A DNA stretch of 64,000 bases from Brachypterus glaber (taxonomy: Eukaryota; Arthropoda; Insecta; Coleoptera; Kateretidae), in assembly GCA_958510825.1 (NCBI GenBank), contig OY294049.1:2232001-2296000 (forward strand). Direction: 5' to 3'. How positions within the stretch are numbered: position 1 is the first letter of the stretch; every line of letters starts with the position of its first letter. The notes beneath the pieces were generated by a model. That model searched no databases. It saw only the letters and a list, made by a program, of their open reading frames with translations, and was not told the DNA's origin. The translations under genes were made by a program, and so were the position numbers. Below are positions 604 to 58,636 of the stretch, piece after piece.

Positions 604-1195
604 TATTCCTTAATATATAAAATCGTATTTAATTTTAGAAATACAGCATTATTATGGCTTAAAATAATATTTTTTTACTAAATATAATATTTTTTGACAA
701 CCAAATGTCATAACAAAATAGAACGCTACTACCAACATCACAAATTAAAAACAACAACAAAATTACAGGTCCACAAACTTAACAACATATTTTAAATTGT
801 TTTATTTGTTCGATAAATTCATATAGATTGTTATAGGTAGATTAAAATAAATATATTATTATTGAATATTTAATTATGTAAAATCTTTTACGTTTTTTTT
901 TTTATAAAAATAGATCCGTTTTAAAAAATAAATATATAAAAATTGAGGTATGTTATGTTGGTACTAATTGTAGGTTAACCGCCATTGTGACGTTTAAGTT
1001 GGTTTGACATTTTTATTTGGTGATCGTTTTGTTTATAAATTATTATTAAAGTGCATTTTCCCTATTTTTTTTATGAATATTTTCTTTGATAAATATATAT
1101 ATTCTAATATATGACGTCACATGAAGAAATTATTTAAAGCTTTTTTTCTAATATAAATGGTGCATCTTCTACAAATCGTCTTCATGTGAAGAAAA
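604..1195. promoter_or_regulatory. Shared head-to-head promoter region with CRE site
   Basis: These 592 bp separate the start codons of the ZAD gene (leftward) and the sororin-like gene (rightward), so both promoters and 5' UTRs must lie here unless untranslated exons exist elsewhere. A perfect palindromic TGACGTCA (CREB/ATF consensus) sits at 1112-1119, 77 bp before the sororin ATG, followed by CATGAAGAAA; a related CTTCATGTGAAG palindrome lies just before that ATG. No clear TATA box can be singled out in this AT-rich stretch. Confidence 0.5.
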
Positions 1196-4100
1196 ATGGG
1201 ACAAAAGGGTTTAAAACCGACCCAAAATAAAGACAATAAACCTAGTGTGAAAAAGCCTTTTCAAGATTTAACCAACATGAATGTAATATCTACCAGGATG
1301 CAGAAACACAAAAGTATTTTTATACTAAGGGTAAAGAGAACATATCTAATTATCATTGTTTTTCAGGGTCCCAGGATATCAAAGAATCTCAAAAGTCAGT
1401 GACAAGAAAAAAACAATCTGAAGAAGGTAATTTTGGTAAGAATTCAACTTTGCAGTTGTTTGTAATGTTAGAAAAACTGAGTGATTCTGAATGTAGTGTA
1501 GTTAAACAAAATGATATAACTTTGAAAAGGAAAGATGCAGTTCCAGGTACTGTTGAAGCAAATGTGTTGACCAAGAAAAAAAAGATAACCATCAAGAAGC
1601 ATTTGGAGGCAGAAGAATCTAATGAAAATACTAATTCTCTTAGCAAAGAAACCTCTGATGGTGAAATTACCAGAAATAAGAAAACCGTTCCCGATAATAC
1701 TTATATAGATAAAAATAAAAGTAAAAAAATACTCAAAAATAATCATAATGCCAAGACAAGTCACAAATCTGCTAAGGAGGATGTGGGATTGAGGAGTGGA
1801 AACTCAAAGAAAAGCATAAAAGAAAACAAATCTGATCCTGAAATAATGTTAAGAAGAAGCCGGTCTTTAAGTCTTCAAGTAAAGGATACACAAAGTTTAA
1901 AAAGTAAATATGCAAACTCAGAAAATGGTGATAAAAACTCAAAGAAAATTATAAAAGAGAAAAACTCAGATATAATGTCTAAAAATGAAAGTACATCACA
2001 AAGAAAAGATAAAAGAATAACTACATCACAAAGTACAAAAGAAAAACTGGATATTTTATCTCCCATGGCAAACACTTGCAACGATAGTGAAAAGATGGAT
2101 GTTGACATTATTAAAGCCAGTAATATAACTTGTAGAAATAGAGTGAGAAAAGATAAAGATAGTAATTTAATAGGTTCTAAAACAAATACAAGAACTAGAT
2201 CTCAAAACAAGGTTACATCACAAAAAATGGAAGAACAATTTGCATTAAACTCAGTAAAAACAGATAAAAATATTGGAATTACAAATACAAATTTGGAATT
2301 AAAGATAATACCTTGCCTTGAAATAAAAAATTCTGGAGAAATTCAGTCAGTGTCATCAGAAAAGATAACAAGAAGAAAATGTTTAAATAGGCAAGTGGCA
2401 AATGAAAAGGATAGTGTGAATTCACAAAATAAAGAAATAATTCAAAAACAAGATGAGACAAAAAATCAATCTGAAAAGGAAAATACAAAAAATACAAAAC
2501 CTGATTTTCCAAAAAAAGATTTTCCACTTAAGAATAAAGATAATAAAATTACTAAAAAATCTGTAACAACTGCAAGGAAAATAAAAAGCACTAGATCGAA
2601 TAAAGATGGAATTAAAATTAAAGAAAATGCAAAAAATTTGAACCTTGGAAAATCCAAAACAGATCAAACTAAAATTATAAAGGCTGGAAAATGTGAAACT
2701 GAAAATTTGATTGAAAGTGTTGATTTACCCACATCTAAATACTTATCTCAACTTAAAATTGATAATTTCTTTCAAAAAAATTCTGCACCTAAAATTCAGA
2801 AAAAAGTCACATTTCAAACTGTAGAGTCTGAGAAAAACTTAAGAAAACACTCTTATGTAAATTATGCGGAACTCAGTGACAATGGCAATGGCAAAACAGT
2901 ATTAGTAAACAAAGAAAATAAAAAGGAAGATAAAATACCAGTCTATAAACAAAAATTTGCAGAAGAAAAACATATAGAAAAAGAAAACGATAATTTATAT
3001 GAATTTGATTCAGATAGTGAAAAGAAAAAGATCCCAAAAAAGAAGAAAATCGTCCTGAAAAAGAAAAAAGTGGTTACAAAGAAGCAAAACTTAAATGATT
3101 CAGGATCAAAATATGATGAAAAGGTCAATATAGTATTAAAAAATGTTATGAAGAAAATAAACAATAAGAATATGAAAAATTTGGATAAAGTAGTAAAAAT
3201 TGCCCAAAATAATGATATTATCAAAACAAATAATACAGGAACCCAAAAACCTGACCATGCAATTTCAAAAAAACATGAGATTGATTTTCAGAAAATATCA
3301 AAGGATCCGGATACAATTGTTACAGAGCAAATAATTTTGGAACCCTTAGAAACCCACATGGAAAAATCTGTTAATCCACCAATTCAAAGAAAAGAGGACA
3401 GAAATAATCTTGTTTTTCAGAGGGTGCCCAGAAATAATCCTGCTTTTGACAGGCTAGTAAAAACTCCTGTTTTAAATGAAGATATTGAAGAACAATTATC
3501 TTATAATGATGTAGAAGCATTTGATAATGATAATGTAGAGATGCCTGTACTAGATTTTTCTGTCATTAATATTGAGGAGTCCATAAACAATAATTTTGAT
3601 TTTGAGATTGAAAAGGAGCCATCCCCAAAAAGAACAATCAATATTTTAGAAAACAGAGTGTTGAGGCGTTCTGTAGGAGACGCCGATTCCCCCATTGTGT
3701 TTCCCAGAAGACCAAATGCTAACAGTACCATGTTAGTGCGGGAATCCCGGAGCCCTTGGCGTTTAAACGTGAATACGACTAGAAATCCGCATTTCCTGAA
3801 ACTTAAAGGAAACGCTCTACCTTCAATCAGTCAGGAAATAATTCTTGACCATATTGTTGATGATGAAATTGTTAAATCCAATAAAACGCCTAGACATGAA
3901 CCTGAGCCAGCAAAGAAAGATCCTGTACAGAAAAGTATGTTGAATTTTATCTCAAGTTCCATCCATAATTTGGAAAACGAAAACTTGGTAAAGAGTAGCT
4001 TGTTTGATGATCAAGAGTTTAGTCCTATCAAACAGAACAAAATTAGCCCAAGGTCTCCATTAAAGGAGATCACAGATAGAAGTAATCAATTAAACAGTTT

Positions 4101-6744
4101 TTCTACGCCGGTGTTGGTCGAAGGACGACTGACGAGAATTCCAAACTTAAATGTTTCTGCTATAGACAAAAGAAATATGGAAAACGAGCCGAGTCTTTAT
4201 GGGTTTAATACGTTTTCGGAGGAATCAGAAAACGTGGTAAGACAAATTAAACAGTACAAACGTAATCCTTTAGCGAAGCCATCTAGATTTAATGTAAATA
4301 TCAAAAAGAAGCAGCCTGTTGTTCAAAAAGAAAATGTAGAAGAAGAAAATGTACAAGAAGCGGAAAATATAGAAGAAGCGGAAAATGAAGAAGAAGAAGA
4401 AAAGATAGAAGAAGCGGAAAATGTTGAATGTGAAGTTCAAGAAAATGTACAAGTAGACATTGAGGAAGAATTGGAAAAGGACATAAGGTTGTTTGAAGAT
4501 TTGGAGGATCCAACTTCCAACAAGGTAATAATACCGTTTTTATATTACCAGCGCTTGCGCTAAAATAATATACGGTAGTTTCGAATTTTCTAAAATGTTC
4601 AAAATCGTCCTAGACAGAAAATTTTTGGATATAAATTTGTTTCATGGAAAAATAAGCAGCTTTTTTTTCAAATGTCCGTCTGTCCGATGTCACGATTTTT
4701 GTGAACACGATAACTCAAGAACGAATAATCCGATCGACTTGAAATTTTCAGGAAAAATCAAGTTCCCAAAAAAACAAAAAAAAAATATGGGGGGTTAAAC
4801 GTTTTAAAAAATCGAAAAAAACTGAAAGAACATTCCGAATAACGTAACTTTTTTAGAAAAAGTTACTTTTAATATAAGGATCAATTCTGCCAATTTTAAA
4901 AGAAATCCCCTCAAAAACAAAAAAGTTATGGAGGCTTGAACTTAAAAAAATATAATTTTTTTCAATTTTTTTCGTTTTTTTTTAGGTATTTTTTTAAAAA
5001 AATGTATTTTTTTTTTTAATTTTTGGTTTTTCGAAAAAAGATCTTTAAAAAAAAGAAACGTTAAAATTTTTGTTTTATTTTTTTTTGAAAATTATATTTT
5101 TTAAGTATTTGGGAAAATGCAATATACCATTTACTGTGAATAATATACAATATAAGGAAATGCGTAGCATTACATATCTTTACGGCTTGTTTTTTTTTGT
5201 CAATAGAGCGTATGCATTAATTTAATATTATTTCTTTTTAGCCTACAAAATCTTACGATTTAATATTATTTCTTTTTAGCCTACAAAATCTTACGATTCA
5301 AAACGAAAGAAACGGCAACGGATGCTGGCACTAAACACTAGTAATGAAGACAATACAGAAAAGCCCAAAAAACGAAAGAAAGATATGATGACAAAAGAAG
5401 AGGTAAATAATTACACAGGCCCACAAAATAAAAAAGTACCCTGATCTTTTGACGAGACAGGTCTATTCTTATGTATTTGTCATCCATGAATCCAAATTCG
5501 AAGTCCGAAAAGTCGCAGTGATTTTTCGAGAAAAATGCAAAAAACATGTTTTTTTATGTTTTTTTTAGAATTAAAAAAAAACGGAAATTTATAAAAGTAA
5601 TCTGACTACGAATCAAAATACATCGAAAACCATATTTAGTTTTTTTTTCACGAATTTTTGAAAACTGTAGCAGCGCGTAACAGCGCTTCAGCCGAACAAA
5701 AAAAAGTATCTTGATCTGGAGACGAGAGGTATTAGGGTACTTTTTTTATTATGTGGGCCTGTGTTATTGTATATTATTGCTTTACACTAGAAACCCTCTA
5801 GTCAAGAGCTATTTGAACGTCATCACAAAATAAAGGGGGTGATTCTATATCACGAAATATGAAAAACCAACATAGGAACATGTGTGCGGAAATAAGCCCC
5901 AAGGGAACTACGGCCCTTTAAAGATGGACATATTGACTAGGGGAACGTTCAAGTATTACGTAACGCAAATTTTGATCATTTTGGACATTTTTGGTGGCAC
6001 AAAATATACCTTCCTTTATAATTGCATTTTTTTTAAACGGTTGCTCCTACAGTGTTACACTATATGACATTTTTTACTTAAGTTGTGTTAAGCCTTACAC
6101 ATTTTTTCCGTCTAGGCACGTCTTTGGATAGATTAAAAAAAATAAGAACATAAACTAATTGCCCTTATTCATACTAGTATACATGCAAAACCTCGTTGCT
6201 CTAGTTCAAAAGGTAACAAAGTTTATAATTATTAACCCTATTTTTAGTACTATTTTAAAGGGTCGTAACTTTCTTAGGGTTCGTCTCCGGACCTATGTGC
6301 CTATGCTGTTTTTTCATGTTAAGTTATCTAGAATCGATTAATCATTCCCTTCCATTTCCAGAAATAATTTTGTTGGGTGGTAGGTTTAGGGAACGTTCAA
6401 GTATTACGTAACGCAAATTTTGATCATTTTGGACTTTTTAAAAATCCGTTGTTTGTGAAAAATACGTCAAAAAAATTACAGATCCAAATCGAGTTCAAGG
6501 TCGCAAAATTGTTTTTTTATTTGTGGCCCTATACCCTACAAAAATAAACCCAAAATGAAAACTCCCTAAATTATTTCTAGGTAAAACTACCTGACCTCTG
6601 GACTATTATCATATCTTATTATTAATAAGTTATTAATCATTTTATTTGGCCTTTTTATTTTAGGAACTTGCTTTTAAGAAGTGGACGGAGGAATTCAATG
6701 CCACCTGCAATGAAATTGACAAAGTTCAATTAGAAATTGAATAG
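1196..6744 (+). CDS. dmt: Sororin/Dalmatian-like cohesin protector (4 exons)
   Basis: Exons 1196-1313, 1367-4524, 5280-5402 and 6664-6744 join in phase (a split AGG codon at the first junction, then phase 0) to 1159 residues. The first intron is 53 bp. The last exon encodes a C-terminus with a Trp exactly 19 residues from the end and the pattern W-x3-F-N-...-LEIE; vertebrate sororin (CDCA5) ends the same way, ungapped (W-x3-M-N-...-LLVE). Other sororin-like points: a YGF at about residue 984 where sororin has its Pds5-binding FGF, an LPSIS motif near 857, SPRSPLKEI near 928, and several KEN triplets of the kind used by APC/C-Cdh1. Most of exon 2 is lysine/asparagine/glutamate-rich and looks disordered, with an acidic EE-rich run before the third exon. 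Sororin antagonises Wapl on chromatin to keep sister chromatids together; the fly homologue Dalmatian is also very long and additionally recruits PP2A. Without splicing, exon 2 would read to a stop at 4563. The symbol is by homology. Confidence 0.85.
5221..5296 (+). repeat. dmt: 38-bp tandem duplication spanning a 3' splice site
   Basis: Two exact 38-bp copies (5221-5258, 5259-5296) each contain the polypyrimidine tract, the TTTTTAG acceptor and the first 17 bases of exon 3 of the sororin-like gene. Only the downstream acceptor (exon start 5280) keeps the frame; the upstream one adds 38 bases, not a multiple of three, and leads to an early stop. Either a true duplication or a local assembly error. 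Confidence 0.85.
5413..5764. mobile_element. Intronic foldback MITE, ACACAGGCCCAC ends
   Basis: Within sororin intron 3 the left arm (ACACAGGCCCACAAAATAAA, then a GTACCCTGATC block) is matched in reverse at 5715-5764 (GGGTAC block, then TTATGTGGGCCTGTGT). Related ends occur at 36655 and 63325. It has no coding capacity and is a short non-autonomous DNA element. Confidence 0.6.
5936..6440. repeat. Two direct copies of the GGGAACGTTC MITE end
   Basis: Near-identical ~50-bp blocks at 5936-5986 and 6388-6436 (GGGAACGTTCAAG, ATTACGTAACGC, then TTTTGATCATTTTGGAC), both in the same orientation inside sororin intron 3. They match the terminal inverted repeats of the elements at 15178, 34746, 38394 and 44835, so these are solo or truncated ends of that family. 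Confidence 0.6.
6160..6350. repeat. Dispersed repeat, copies near 9617 and 22590
   Basis: The stretch starting GCCCTTATT-ATACTAGTATACAT and running through AAAGGGTCGTAACT and TTAGGGTTCGT to a TGTAGAATCA-like end recurs at about 9617-9800 with roughly 80% identity and, more diverged, at 22590-22780. It is non-coding and its class is unknown. Confidence 0.55.
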
Positions 6745-48332: not shown

Positions 48333-48882
48333 TCAATTGTTTTTTTAGTCATTAGAAGAATGTCGCTCTATTAATATCGGGTATCCTAAATGCACCATAA
48401 TTTTTTAAAATAACTCCTCATAAAAGTAGATTAAAACATATTGCCACAGTCAAAGGTCATGCAACAAAGCCTATTGTATGAGGGTATACACAAGCGACTG
48501 ACAAATTAAAAGGCCAAAAATGTAAATGACCCAATTAATAAATATTAACTACATGTAGGTACGACTACTTTAGTTACAACAAAAGTCTGTTTTTAATTGA
48601 TCTTATTATAACGTGGGTGACTAGTTCTCTCTATGCTTTAAAAAAATACTAATCAAACGTATTTTCTTTAAATAGATCTAGTACGAGCCAGTTATAGTAT
48701 ATCGTTACTAATTTGTTGCAATTGTTTTAAAAATACAGTTGATGACAATATCAATTACTGGTACTTACACATTTGCAGATAGGTAGGTACCAAGTATAGT
48801 AGATGACTTTTAGCTAAAAGTCGAAACTAAAGATTATTACTAATGATTCGGAAAACAGAGTTAACCCTTTACTGGTATGGCG

Positions 48883-50052
48883 TAGGGACCCTAAATAAAG
48901 TGACATTTAACTTCACACAAAGGGTTGAGACACGCTTTGATTTTGAGGTTAAAATGGCAACCAAGCACTAGTATTGTTAAACAATGAAATACAATGGTTT
49001 TATCCAAAGTGCTTTGGTGCCAAATCTAAATCTAGTTATAATTATGTCTAAATTTAATACAATTCTGTCAGATACAAAATCTGAGGTTATAGTTAAATGT
49101 CAATCCCAACAGAGGCGTCGATATTAATTAATATAATAATATTGTCATATTTAAGTGTCAGTGTCAAACTGAATATTTGGTCATCAAATTTATTTATTTA
49201 CGAAATTATGGTTTATAGTTTTATTATTGTACTTTTTTAAAGTGCCTACGAAAATACCTGTACAATTTAAATCAAGATTTACTTATGGAATATACTGAAT
49301 ATCTTTAATCAAAAGCATTTCTATTTGGTTTTTGTTGAATGTACCTCCCAATGATAAAATTAAATTATTATATTGATTTTTGAGCAAATTTTGATTATTT
49401 TTCAAACTAAAATTTTCTTCTTCCAAGGTTTTTATGTATATATTAAGTGCTTTAAATTTTTCTTCATTTTCTACAAGTATTTTCTCAATTTCCAAAATAT
49501 TTTTATCTTTCTCCAAAATAATTTGTTCCTTTTCAAAAATAATTTTTTCATAATTCGATAATTTAGAATGAATTTGATTACCATCTAGAACATTTAATTT
49601 TCTATTAAAACTACAATTTTTTTGAATTTTTGGAATTGCGGTTTCTTTTAATTTTAAAATAAAATCTTCCTCTGAAAAGTGTGCCTACAAAAGTAACAAA
49701 TTTAAAAATTTTAAAGTTCATTTTTTCATATTTTTACTTCGCAAATTTTTGATTTATCGAAAATCTTCCAATTCGGAAGATACATGCTTCTTTTCCATTC
49801 ATTTAATAATGCATTGCATTTGGGGAATGGAAATAATATATATCCTGCATGGATAGAATTACGACAGTTTACCACTGAACATTGTCGTGACATTTTTTCA
49901 AAAAACACGTCTATGGATATTTTGACAAGTAATGTCACTTCTACTATACCAATAGTGCCAATTCGCAAAAAAAACATAACCCTGCAGAAATTACTAAATT
50001 GGTGTCTCAACCCTTTGTGTGAAGTTAAATGTCACTTTATTTAGGGTCCCTA
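48883..50052 (-). mobile_element. P-like DNA transposon, 51-bp TIRs, TSD GTATGGCG
   Basis: Positions 48883-48933 and 50002-50052 are exact inverted copies starting TAGGGACCCTAAATAAAG. GTATGGCG lies directly outside both ends (48875-48882 and 50053-50060). An 8-bp duplication together with a THAP-domain gene is the signature of the P superfamily. The perfect ends and perfect duplication imply a recent insertion. The element is 1170 bp, has one gene (minus strand) and lacks the GTPase-like insertion and catalytic domains of a full P transposase, so it cannot move by itself. Confidence 0.85.
49283..49893 (-). CDS. THAP-domain/coiled-coil protein of the P-like element (2 exons)
   Basis: Exons 49893-49738 and 49684-49283 join in phase 0 over a 53-bp intron (GTAAAA donor, TTTTGTAG acceptor) into 185 residues. 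The N-terminus is a complete THAP zinc finger: C5-x4-C10, C51-x2-H54 as zinc ligands, FPFP at 21-24, W33, F55, and TAIPKI at 67-72 in place of the AVPTIF box with its proline. The intron falls between C51 and H54. From about residue 95 to 155 the chain is rich in E/K with I/L at heptad spacing (ILEKDKNILEIEKILVENEE), a predicted coiled coil. No RNase-H-like catalytic part follows. The ATG with AAAA upstream places the finger at the extreme N-terminus; an in-frame ATG 28 codons earlier is less likely. AATAAA-type signals (minus strand) lie near 49190. THAP plus dimerising coil without catalysis is the layout of the 207-residue KP repressor of Drosophila P; repression here is inference. Confidence 0.87.
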
Positions 50053-50383
50053 GTATGGCGGGGTCAATTTTGACCGAAAAAAATAAAACCATTTTGAACT
50101 ACCCTGTATTATATTTTTGTGGGAAAATTTTTTTAACCATATTTTTTCTAATTTTTGGTAATTGATTTCTTTTTTATGGTTTACTATTTTTTTATTTTGT
50201 TTGCAAAAAATGGACGAGTTAAGGGTTAAAAACAGGGCTTAGCGTTAAACAAAGATTAAAAAAAAAAATTAAAAAGTTGAAAAAAGAGAAATTTCTTGAC
50301 AAAAGTATAAGAAAACAAAGCTTAAAATTATTATGTTTTTTTTTGTTTAGTGGTTTAGTATAATACTATAATAATTATACTGG

Positions 50384-51489: not shown

Positions 51490-51944
51490 CAGTGCGATTA
51501 TAAAGTGCCGAACAGTTTGAAAAGAAAATATTCTTTGTTTGAAGCCACGNNNNNNNNNNNNNNNNNNNNNNNNNNNNNNNNNNNNNNNNNNNNNNNNNNN
51601 NNNNNNNNNNNNNNNNNNNNNNNNNNNNNNNNNNNNNNNNNNNNNNNNNNNNNNNNNNNNNNNNNNNNNNNNNNNNNNNNNNNNNNNNNNNNNNNNNNNN
51701 NNNNNNNNNNNNNNNNNNNNNNNNNNNNNNNNNNNNNNNNNNNNNNNNNAGTGCCGAACAGTTTGAAAAGAAAATATTCTTCGTTTGAAGCCACGCCTCT
51801 GTTAGAGTTGTGCTCGACAAGCCCATGTGATTGCTATGTACAACAGCTCGGTGGCCAGTAAAACGCACACAGCTTTCTTGCATTTTACTCATCGCTAATG
51901 CCAGTTTTCCATTAAAAAGTGTTCGGCACTTTATAATCGCACGG
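51490..51944. mobile_element. TA-flanked mariner-like MITE interrupted by an N gap
   Basis: Starts CAGTGCGATTATAAAGTGCC after TA and ends GGCACTTTATAATCGCACGG before TA, so a 25-bp terminal repeat with a TA target as in Tc1/mariner. No transposase is recognisable in what remains. Confidence 0.7.
51550..51749. other. Assembly gap (200 N)
   Basis: Exactly 200 N. The ~45 bases before the gap (AGTGCCGAACAGTTTGAAAA...GAAGCCACG) recur immediately after it with one difference, so the two contig ends probably overlap or the repeat was collapsed. Confidence 0.97.
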
Positions 51945-57251: not shown

Positions 57252-58636
57252 ATAAAATAATAATAATAATAATGTTTATTAATCTAATTATCACAAAAAA
57301 GGATGTTAGACAAGTCAAAGATACAATAATGATTTTTAAAAATAAAATTTCATACTAAAAATTGTATTACAAAGAATATTACCTATATTATTAATTGTTT
57401 GAAACATATTGAAGAAACTCGTCCACGGAGTAAAATGCTTTGTTTAATAACAATTGTTTTAATTCAGATAAGAATGGTTTTAAATTTTTAGACCTTAAAC
57501 TGTTCGGTAATTTATTATAAAAAATGGCACCTTGGTAGTGAGGATCAGATTCAAAAAGTGCCAATCTATGTCGTGGATACTGCAGATCTCTATTTCTAGT
57601 GACATATTCGTGATAAAGGTTTAAAGTAGGTAATGTGTTAAAATTTTGTTTCATAAATTTTAATGTTTCAAAAATGTATAGACACGGCAAAGTAAAAATT
57701 GATTCCTCAATAAAACTATTTTTACAAGTATCCCTGTATCGGAGATTAAGCAAACATCTAATGGCTCGTTTTTGCATTAAAAAAACACGATCTGCCGTTG
57801 ACGAATTTCCAGAATATGATTCCATATCGTAATATGGATTCAAAATTTGAATAATAAAAAACTTTTGTAACATGTTTACTAGTTATTTCTGAGAGTCTTT
57901 TTATAGCATAGCAGTATGATGAACATTTTTTTGTTAATTCTTCGACATGAGTTTTCCAACTAAGAGATGAGTCAATATTTATAGCCAAAAGTTTTACGCT
58001 TGTTACCTGTTGTATGCTTTTTTTATTTAGCTTAATAAGTGAGCTTTGTGTATATCTATGAGGACAGGGTTGAAACTGTATTGAATATGTCTTTTCTTGG
58101 TTTAAACTTAAGGCATTATTGGAAAGGTAATTAAAAATATCTTTAAGGCTGCTGTTTAACTGACTCACTACATTTTCTTGTTCTTTATCTGAGGCTAATA
58201 AAGTGACATCGTCGGCAAAGGCACAAAAAAAGATTGACAAATTTTCGTCTAAATCATTACAATATAGTAAAAATAGCAACGGCCCTAGCACGCTACCCTG
58301 GGGTACGCCTATATCTACTGAACTTAAAACTGAGTTTGCACTTTCATAGCTAACAAATTGTTTTCTGTTAGTTAAGTAACTTTTTAACAGATTGTTACAT
58401 TTACCACGCAAACCATAGTACTCTATTTTTTTTAGCAAAAGTTCAGGATCCACACAATCGAATGCTTTTGTGAGATCAATCAATAATGCCATAACTTTTT
58501 CATTATTGTCCATGTCCTTGTAGATTTTCTTAATTATCTCTAATAAAGCGGTTATAGTGGACCTTTTAGTCCTGAAGCCATGCTGTGCAGAACTTATTAA
58601 GCTAAATGTTTCTAAAAAGTCGATAATCCTTTTTTA
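57252..58636 (-). pseudogene. 5'-truncated non-LTR retrotransposon (reverse transcriptase remnant)
   Basis: Open frames on the minus strand from 58636 to about 57812 and, after a one-base frameshift near 57812 (in the TGGAAATTC run), on to 57394. They contain reverse transcriptase motifs in order: QHGFRTKRST (upstream of the first ATG), DLTKAFDCVD, GVPQGSVLGPLLFLLY, the catalytic FADD (in FAFADDVTLL), the LNQEKT and thumb regions, LRYGIIFWG.., QKRAIR, and a C-terminus with LPNSLRS..FLSELKQLLL. This order fits Jockey/CR1/L2-type LINEs, which copy themselves by target-primed reverse transcription. Endonuclease and ORF1 are missing, and the 3' UTR ends in an (ATT)n tail (plus-strand AATAATAAT at 57256). 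Dead by truncation and frameshift. Confidence 0.85.

What the first reader, a model, noticed from the sequence alone, without database searches (positions are those of the whole stretch)
48883..50052. Recent P-like transposon that encodes only a KP-style THAP/coiled-coil protein
Seen: 51-bp perfect terminal inverted repeats, a perfect 8-bp duplication GTATGGCG, and a single two-exon gene for 185 residues with a complete THAP finger followed by a coiled coil and no catalytic part. Known: Drosophila P elements make 8-bp duplications, and the internally deleted KP element encodes a 207-residue THAP plus leucine-zipper repressor. Inference: an independently evolved repressor-type P element, with the open reading frame and splice signals apparently intact although the element cannot move by itself. 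An intron placed between the zinc ligands C51 and H54 is also notable. This is the best candidate here for an undescribed functional system.
Basis: partly seen in the sequence, partly recalled or inferred. Interest (0 to 1): 0.88.

Follow-up and report, generated by a model that had tools for sequence, protein, structure and literature searches.

The report
Internally deleted P-type transposon, THAP-only
This is a shortened, non-self-moving copy of a P-type jumping gene that kept only the DNA-binding and pairing part of its enzyme; it resembles the fruit-fly KP element, but nothing here shows that it acts as a repressor.

Summary
In detail: 48883-50052 is a 1170-bp transposon with perfect 51-bp inverted ends, a perfect 8-bp duplication and a two-exon gene for 185 residues (THAP finger plus probable coiled coil). 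The host genome (648 Mb, unnamed, probably an insect) holds its parents: elements of about 5 kb with the same ends that encode a P-superfamily transposase (Pfam PF21787/PF21788; solved Drosophila P transposase, E 1e-20). The window element is an internal deletion of that transposon (positions ~756-4581 lost); its last five residues come from the former 3' region. The exact deletion junction occurs 11 times genome-wide. The family has roughly 145 copies; 64 of 69 whose two ends could be paired are 0.9-1.8 kb, and all 9 loci found with the catalytic region are broken. Copies lie about 0.5% from their consensus: one fairly recent burst. Unusually, this form's 3' end is a perfect copy of its 5' end. 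A KP-like repressor role is possible by architecture but unsupported: the frame is broken in 5 of 11 copies, constraint is not detectable, and other forms spread without the coiled coil or without a complete THAP. It is a new member of a known kind.

The parts
48875..48882 (.). 8-bp target site duplication, left copy (GTATGGCG)
50053..50060 (.). 8-bp target site duplication, right copy (GTATGGCG)
48883..48933 (+). 51-bp terminal inverted repeat at the 3' end of the gene; in this deletion form it is a perfect copy of the 5' end, while the 3' ends of 23 elements of other forms and full-length copies differ from it at three or four shared positions (some at further ones)
50002..50052 (-). 51-bp terminal inverted repeat at the 5' end of the gene
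49738..49893 (-). exon 1, ATG to the codon after C51 (residues 1-52), first part of THAP
49685..49737 (-). 53-bp GT..AG intron, phase 0, between zinc ligands C51 and H54; also present in full-length relatives (splicing inferred)
49283..49684 (-). exon 2 with stop codon: end of THAP (to residue 72) and coiled-coil region
49349..49582 (-). predicted long helix / probable coiled coil, residues 87-164
49298..49300 (.). internal deletion junction (full-length positions about 755 | 4582 joined, 2-3 bp of filler); downstream of it the frame reads five residues of former 3' region and stops
49091..49102 (-). internal exact copy of the TIR motif TGACATTTAACT, candidate THAP/transposase site (inferred)
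49931..49940 (-). internal copy of the TIR motif AAGTGACATT, candidate THAP/transposase site (inferred)
48861..48876 (.). left arm of the short TTAA-flanked element into which the transposon jumped (partner arm 50214-50229)

Best explanation
A non-autonomous, internally deleted member of a P-superfamily DNA transposon family in an animal (probably insect) genome. Shown: a parent of about 5 kb with the same ends encodes THAP - coiled coil - RNase H/GTP-binding P transposase; loss of about 3.8 kb between positions ~756 and 4581 left both ends and the first 180 codons; the resulting 1170-bp form sits at 11 places, with perfect 8-bp duplications in the 8 copies for which both ends were found in place. 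If the spliced mRNA is made, the 185-residue protein should bind the family's ends through THAP and dimerise, so it could compete with the transposase as KP does; whether it does so, and whether this ever mattered for its spread, is not shown.
For: Full-length relatives L033, L035, L037, L038 have the same ends and perfect 8-bp duplications, and open pieces of them hit PF21787 (92 bits), PF21788 (35 bits) and Drosophila P transposase 6p5a at E 1.3e-20. A transposase query found 64 homologues; the five that carry an organism name are four insects and Hydra. The junction maps to full-length 755|4582 and occurs at 11 places. 31 distinct family elements with both ends have perfect 8-bp duplications, one (L007) does not. 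Two relatives of the target element without the insert exist in the genome. Forms lie on average 0.3-1.0% from one family consensus (39 rows).
Against: The ends start TAGGG; zebrafish Pdre2 starts CATACC (passage), and the usual P rule, as I recall it, starts with CA, so by ends alone hAT would fit better. No intact transposase gene was found to supply movement (9 of 9 loci broken). Expression, splicing and DNA binding were not tested. A search with the 185 residues found no homologue at E 0.01.
Confidence: 0.9

Rival explanations
1. A true KP-type repressor: the deletion form spread or persisted because its THAP/coiled-coil protein blocks the family transposase, and the protein is or was under selection.
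For: A THAP DNA-binding domain with the catalytic part removed meets the two properties given for P repressors in PMC12393704 (passages). Open frame with splice sites in place in 6 of 11 copies. Per-copy counts of 7 synonymous to 15 nonsynonymous or stop changes, a slight and untested excess of synonymous ones. The catalytic copies found are all broken, as in a repressed or out-competed family.
Against: 5 of 11 copies broken; 22 coding changes in 555 sites against 29 in 513 non-coding sites. Form F8, of about the same length but without the coiled coil, has 8 fetched copies and the lowest mean divergence of the forms with more than one copy. Ten further 5' ends, chosen outside the best-match list, all lack a complete THAP.
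Confidence: 0.2
2. A hAT-type rather than P-type element that happens to carry a THAP domain.
For: Ends begin TAGGG and a duplication of 8 bp also fits hAT (rule recalled); the target sites lean to T at position 2 and A at 7.
Against: Full-length relatives with the same ends encode a P transposase; no hAT domain was reported for the pieces scanned.
Confidence: 0.02
3. A domesticated host gene derived from a P element.
For: An open two-exon THAP gene.
Against: Flanked by intact ends and a duplication, the same form at 11 places, with lesions in 5 of the 11.
Confidence: 0.02

Closest known systems
Drosophila melanogaster KP element (207-residue KP protein; review PMC7776569, passages; PMC12393704, passages)
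   Same: Internally deleted P-superfamily element encoding the DNA-binding part of the transposase without the catalytic part; P elements make 8-bp duplications
   Different: Another P family with 51-bp TAGGG ends; 185 residues with a five-residue tail from former 3' sequence; 3' end a copy of the 5' end; repression not tested; all catalytic copies found in this assembly broken. KP was not aligned here
Anopheles gambiae P subfamilies and P-MITEs (PMC1562414, abstract and first part of Results)
   Same: Short forms with P ends and 8-bp duplications beside full-length P copies
   Different: P-MITEs there have a central region unrelated to P; here the interior is P sequence and some forms keep the THAP gene
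Zebrafish Pdre2/THAP9 elements (PMC10983969 and PMC7776569, passages)
   Same: Full-length THAP transposase gene with internally deleted relatives and 8-bp duplications
   Different: 13-bp ends beginning CA and 12-bp subterminal repeats; here 51-bp ends beginning TAG
Unnamed P transposase P0001 (54% identity) and Photinus pyralis PPYR_01584, P0003 (41%)
   Same: P0001 (sequence read by eye) has the same order: AIPTIF box, heptad-rich stretch, FNQNQI, then the transposase part
   Different: Only protein sequences seen, no ends or deletion forms examined; BLASTP of P0001 with the 185 residues gave only weak pieces (best E 0.14)

Membership tests
P transposon superfamily | Transposase with P-type RNase H and GTP-binding insertion domain in the autonomous relative | tested here: met
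   PF21787 92 bits, PF21788 35 bits; 6p5a E 1.3e-20; on full-length relatives, not on the window copy, and those relatives are themselves broken
P transposon superfamily | N-terminal THAP domain | tested here: met
   PF05485 42.4 bits
P transposon superfamily | 8-bp target site duplication | tested here: met
   31 distinct elements perfect (32 rows of 52, one a duplicate locus), one (L007) not, 19 rows without a pair of ends in the fetched stretch; where several end pairs were possible the script took the best-matching one
P transposon superfamily | Ends beginning with CA (rule recalled, CANRG) | tested here: not met
   Ends begin TAGGG. I treat the recalled rule as a tendency and the transposase as decisive; the literature search for the rule did not yield it
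KP-type P repressor | Internal deletion of a P element removing the catalytic part, DNA-binding domain kept | tested here: met
KP-type P repressor | Dimerisation coiled coil / leucine zipper kept | tested here: inconclusive
   long helix predicted; heptad statistics depend on the stretch chosen
KP-type P repressor | Protein is made, binds the ends and lowers transposition | not testable with these tools
   needs RNA and biochemical data
KP-type P repressor | Reading frame maintained across copies | tested here: inconclusive
   open in 6 of 11 copies; change counts not clearly constrained
hAT superfamily | hAT transposase in the autonomous relative | tested here: not met

The most novel reading that the evidence does not exclude
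A KP-like cheater that combined three traits: loss of the enzyme, retention of a THAP/coiled-coil inhibitor, and conversion of its 3' end into a perfect copy of the 5' end, making it both a better substrate and a repressor, so that together with other deletion forms it drove its own P family to extinction in this genome.
Probability: 0.15. Interest if true: 0.65.

Novelty: new member of a known kind. Interest (0 to 1): 0.38.

Why it matters
It gives an example, probably outside Drosophila, of a P family overrun by internal deletion forms with every catalytic copy found broken. PMC12393704 (passages) saw deletion forms displace most full-length copies in one laboratory population and suggested the same for natural ones. 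Several deletion forms of similar age, some with THAP plus coiled coil, some with THAP alone and some without a complete THAP, are a natural comparison for asking whether the encoded protein, or only short length and good ends, drives spread.

Tried and rejected
Tried: homologues of the 185 residues (217 candidates, none at E 0.01); the element against phage records and an 18-nt end pattern against viral contigs (no match; neither collection is expected to hold insect DNA). Considered hAT because of the TAGGG ends; rejected by the full-length relatives. Considered selection on the frame; change counts do not show it. Literature: searches listed P-element papers mainly on Drosophila, with others on mosquito and zebrafish; one search (P neogenes) returned no paper. 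I found no paper on this family, but the host is unknown, so this is weak. Whether the open 581-residue P-like frames elsewhere (38% identity) could move this family was not pursued beyond reading one copy (L054); its listed inverted repeats did not resemble our ends and its own ends were not identified.

Absolute dating was not attempted (no rate for an unknown host). Absence of an intact autonomous copy holds for this one assembly and for the 64 of 64 candidates scored. Only 40 of 420 candidates were scored, so form counts other than the 11 are lower bounds.

Full report
Observation. The element at 48883-50052 is as described: 51-nt perfect inverted ends, duplication GTATGGCG on both sides, and a minus-strand gene with ATG at 49893, a 53-bp GT..AG intron at 49685-49737 and a stop ending at 49283, giving 185 residues with C5, C10, C51 and H54. 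Pfam THAP covers residues 5-72 (42.4 bits); the nearest solved chain by sequence is THAP1, E 0.0032. The transposon lies inside a short TTAA-flanked element (arms 48861-48876 and 50214-50229). The joined flank pattern occurs at two other places in the genome, with 2 and 3 mismatches and without the insert: relatives of the target with an empty site.

Copies. The window lies in an unnamed 648-Mb genome of 842 contigs. A DNA search scored 40 of 420 candidates and returned the window copy, ten further copies of the same form and many related forms. The deletion junction (up to 2 mismatches) occurs at 11 places, reversed control 0, and these are the same 11. Two of them, L007 and L010, have flanks about 96% alike and L007 shows the duplication of L010 on one side, so they look like one insertion that was later duplicated; 10 insertions would then be independent. 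In 8 of the 11 both ends were found with perfect 8-bp duplications; L007, L008 and L011 have damaged 5' ends.

Parent. Stretches around copies that ran past the first fetched piece gave full-length elements with the same ends and perfect 8-bp duplications: L035 4997 bp, L038 4870 bp, L037 4556 bp and L033 5845 bp with a nested insert. Their open pieces hold THAP, coiled-coil region and then a P-type transposase: PF21787 92 bits and PF21788 35 bits, and 6p5a, the Drosophila P transposase, at E 1.3e-20. A 531-residue query found 64 homologues; the five with an organism name are from a firefly, a cockroach, two ants and Hydra, and the best, unnamed, is 54% identical. This settles P type, although the ends begin TAGGG. 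The intron motifs are present in 7 of 8 long loci checked, 53 bp apart in six and 52 in L033 (lengths as printed there are one too high).

The deletion. Against L035 the window form is 1-755 joined to 4582-4997 with 2-3 bp of filler at the junction. The first 180 codons are those of the transposase; the last five residues and the stop come from the former 3' region. Other forms found: 756|4345 (4 elements), 994|4551 (2), 671|4056 (2), 624|3992 (2), 729|4351 (1), 1013|4309 (1), 661|4111 (1, L040), and a form deleted from about 490-516 to 4323 (8 fetched copies, called F8); of the 7 of these tabulated, 6 encode 114 residues and one 99, THAP without the coiled coil.

Family size. The 5' end pattern has 157 places and the 3' pattern 128, reversed controls 0. 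Each answer lists only 100 places. Pairing these gave 69 elements: 37 of 0.9-1.3 kb, 27 of 1.3-1.8 kb, 1 shorter, 1 of 2.4 kb and 3 over 4 kb; 25 listed 5' ends and 38 listed 3' ends stayed unpaired, in part because partners were not listed. From these counts I estimate roughly 145 elements. Ten 5' ends that were not in the list, hence biased against THAP-bearing forms, were fetched: none of 10 keeps a complete THAP gene.

No intact parent found. A catalytic-region protein search scored 64 of 64 candidates. I count 9 own-family loci (best pieces 81-100% identical); each has a stop, frame break, insertion or deletion in the transposase gene. For C2:31828110 this rests on the two-frame match alone.

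Age and selection. In 807 compared columns (39 rows, three of them with one of the two compared parts only) the forms lie on average 0.3-1.0% from one consensus, without deep structure; the window form lies 0.48% from its own consensus. Among its 11 copies there are, counted per copy, 7 synonymous, 13 nonsynonymous, 2 stop and 29 non-coding changes over about 99 synonymous, 456 nonsynonymous and 513 non-coding sites. This is compatible with neutral decay, with a slight, untested excess of synonymous changes. The frame with its splice sites is open in L001, L002, L003, L006, L008 and L011 and broken in L004, L005, L007, L009 and L010; L002 has lost W33, which aligns with a tryptophan of THAP1.

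Ends. In all 9 copies of the window form in the table the 3' end equals the 5' end sequence of the family; of 23 elements of other forms and full-length copies 22 carry the same four differences there and L037 three of them. L057, a 1292-bp element with the 756|4345 junction and a further THAP deletion, also has the copied 3' end. It also carries the marker base of the window form in the 3' region, which is G in 10 of 11 copies of that form and in L057, while 29 other loci with the exact context have A. Inference: the end was converted once in an ancestor with the 756 left breakpoint, and the window form arose from it by a second deletion. The four elements of form 756|4345 have two marker bases of their own and the unconverted end, so they would be a side branch.

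How it works. Shown: no catalytic part, P-family ends, multiplied by transposition (different duplications at different places). Inferred: moved in trans by the family transposase. Possible: its protein competes for the ends. Internal copies of end motifs are candidate sites (6 matches in L001 against 0.79 expected, two of them the ends themselves and one exact internal copy; 4 against 0.45, again with two ends); Galileo THAP domains bind sites near the ends of that P-superfamily element (PMC3688188, abstract).

Verdict. New member of a known kind, the internally deleted P element with a KP-like coding remnant; the repressor claim stays open.

Noticed in passing
G000:C18:10249136, C15:41208412, C2:28239633 (L054 for the first): Another P-superfamily transposase, 38% identical, with an open 581-residue frame at three places with near-equal scores; may be a still intact P family in the same genome.
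   Followed up: partly
48861-50229: The transposon is nested in a short element of about 190 bp with TTAA ends (piggyBac-like look, name recalled); two uninterrupted relatives lie on contig C2.
   Followed up: partly
G000:C1:6359710-6361001 (L057): A 1292-bp relative shares the converted 3' end and a marker base with the window form but has a second deletion inside THAP.
   Followed up: partly
31 duplications of the family: Target sites lean to a palindrome, G or C at both edges, T at 2-3 and A at 6-7.
   Followed up: partly
57391-58633: Minus-strand reverse transcriptase fragment (PF00078, 93 bits for 57761-58633), of LINE type by its look.
   Followed up: no
1246-4563: Open frame of 1105 residues, lysine-rich, no Pfam match at E 0.01, possibly a host protein.
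   Followed up: no
about 51500-51780: Stretch that reads X in translations of the window, so N in the DNA; not looked into.
   Followed up: no
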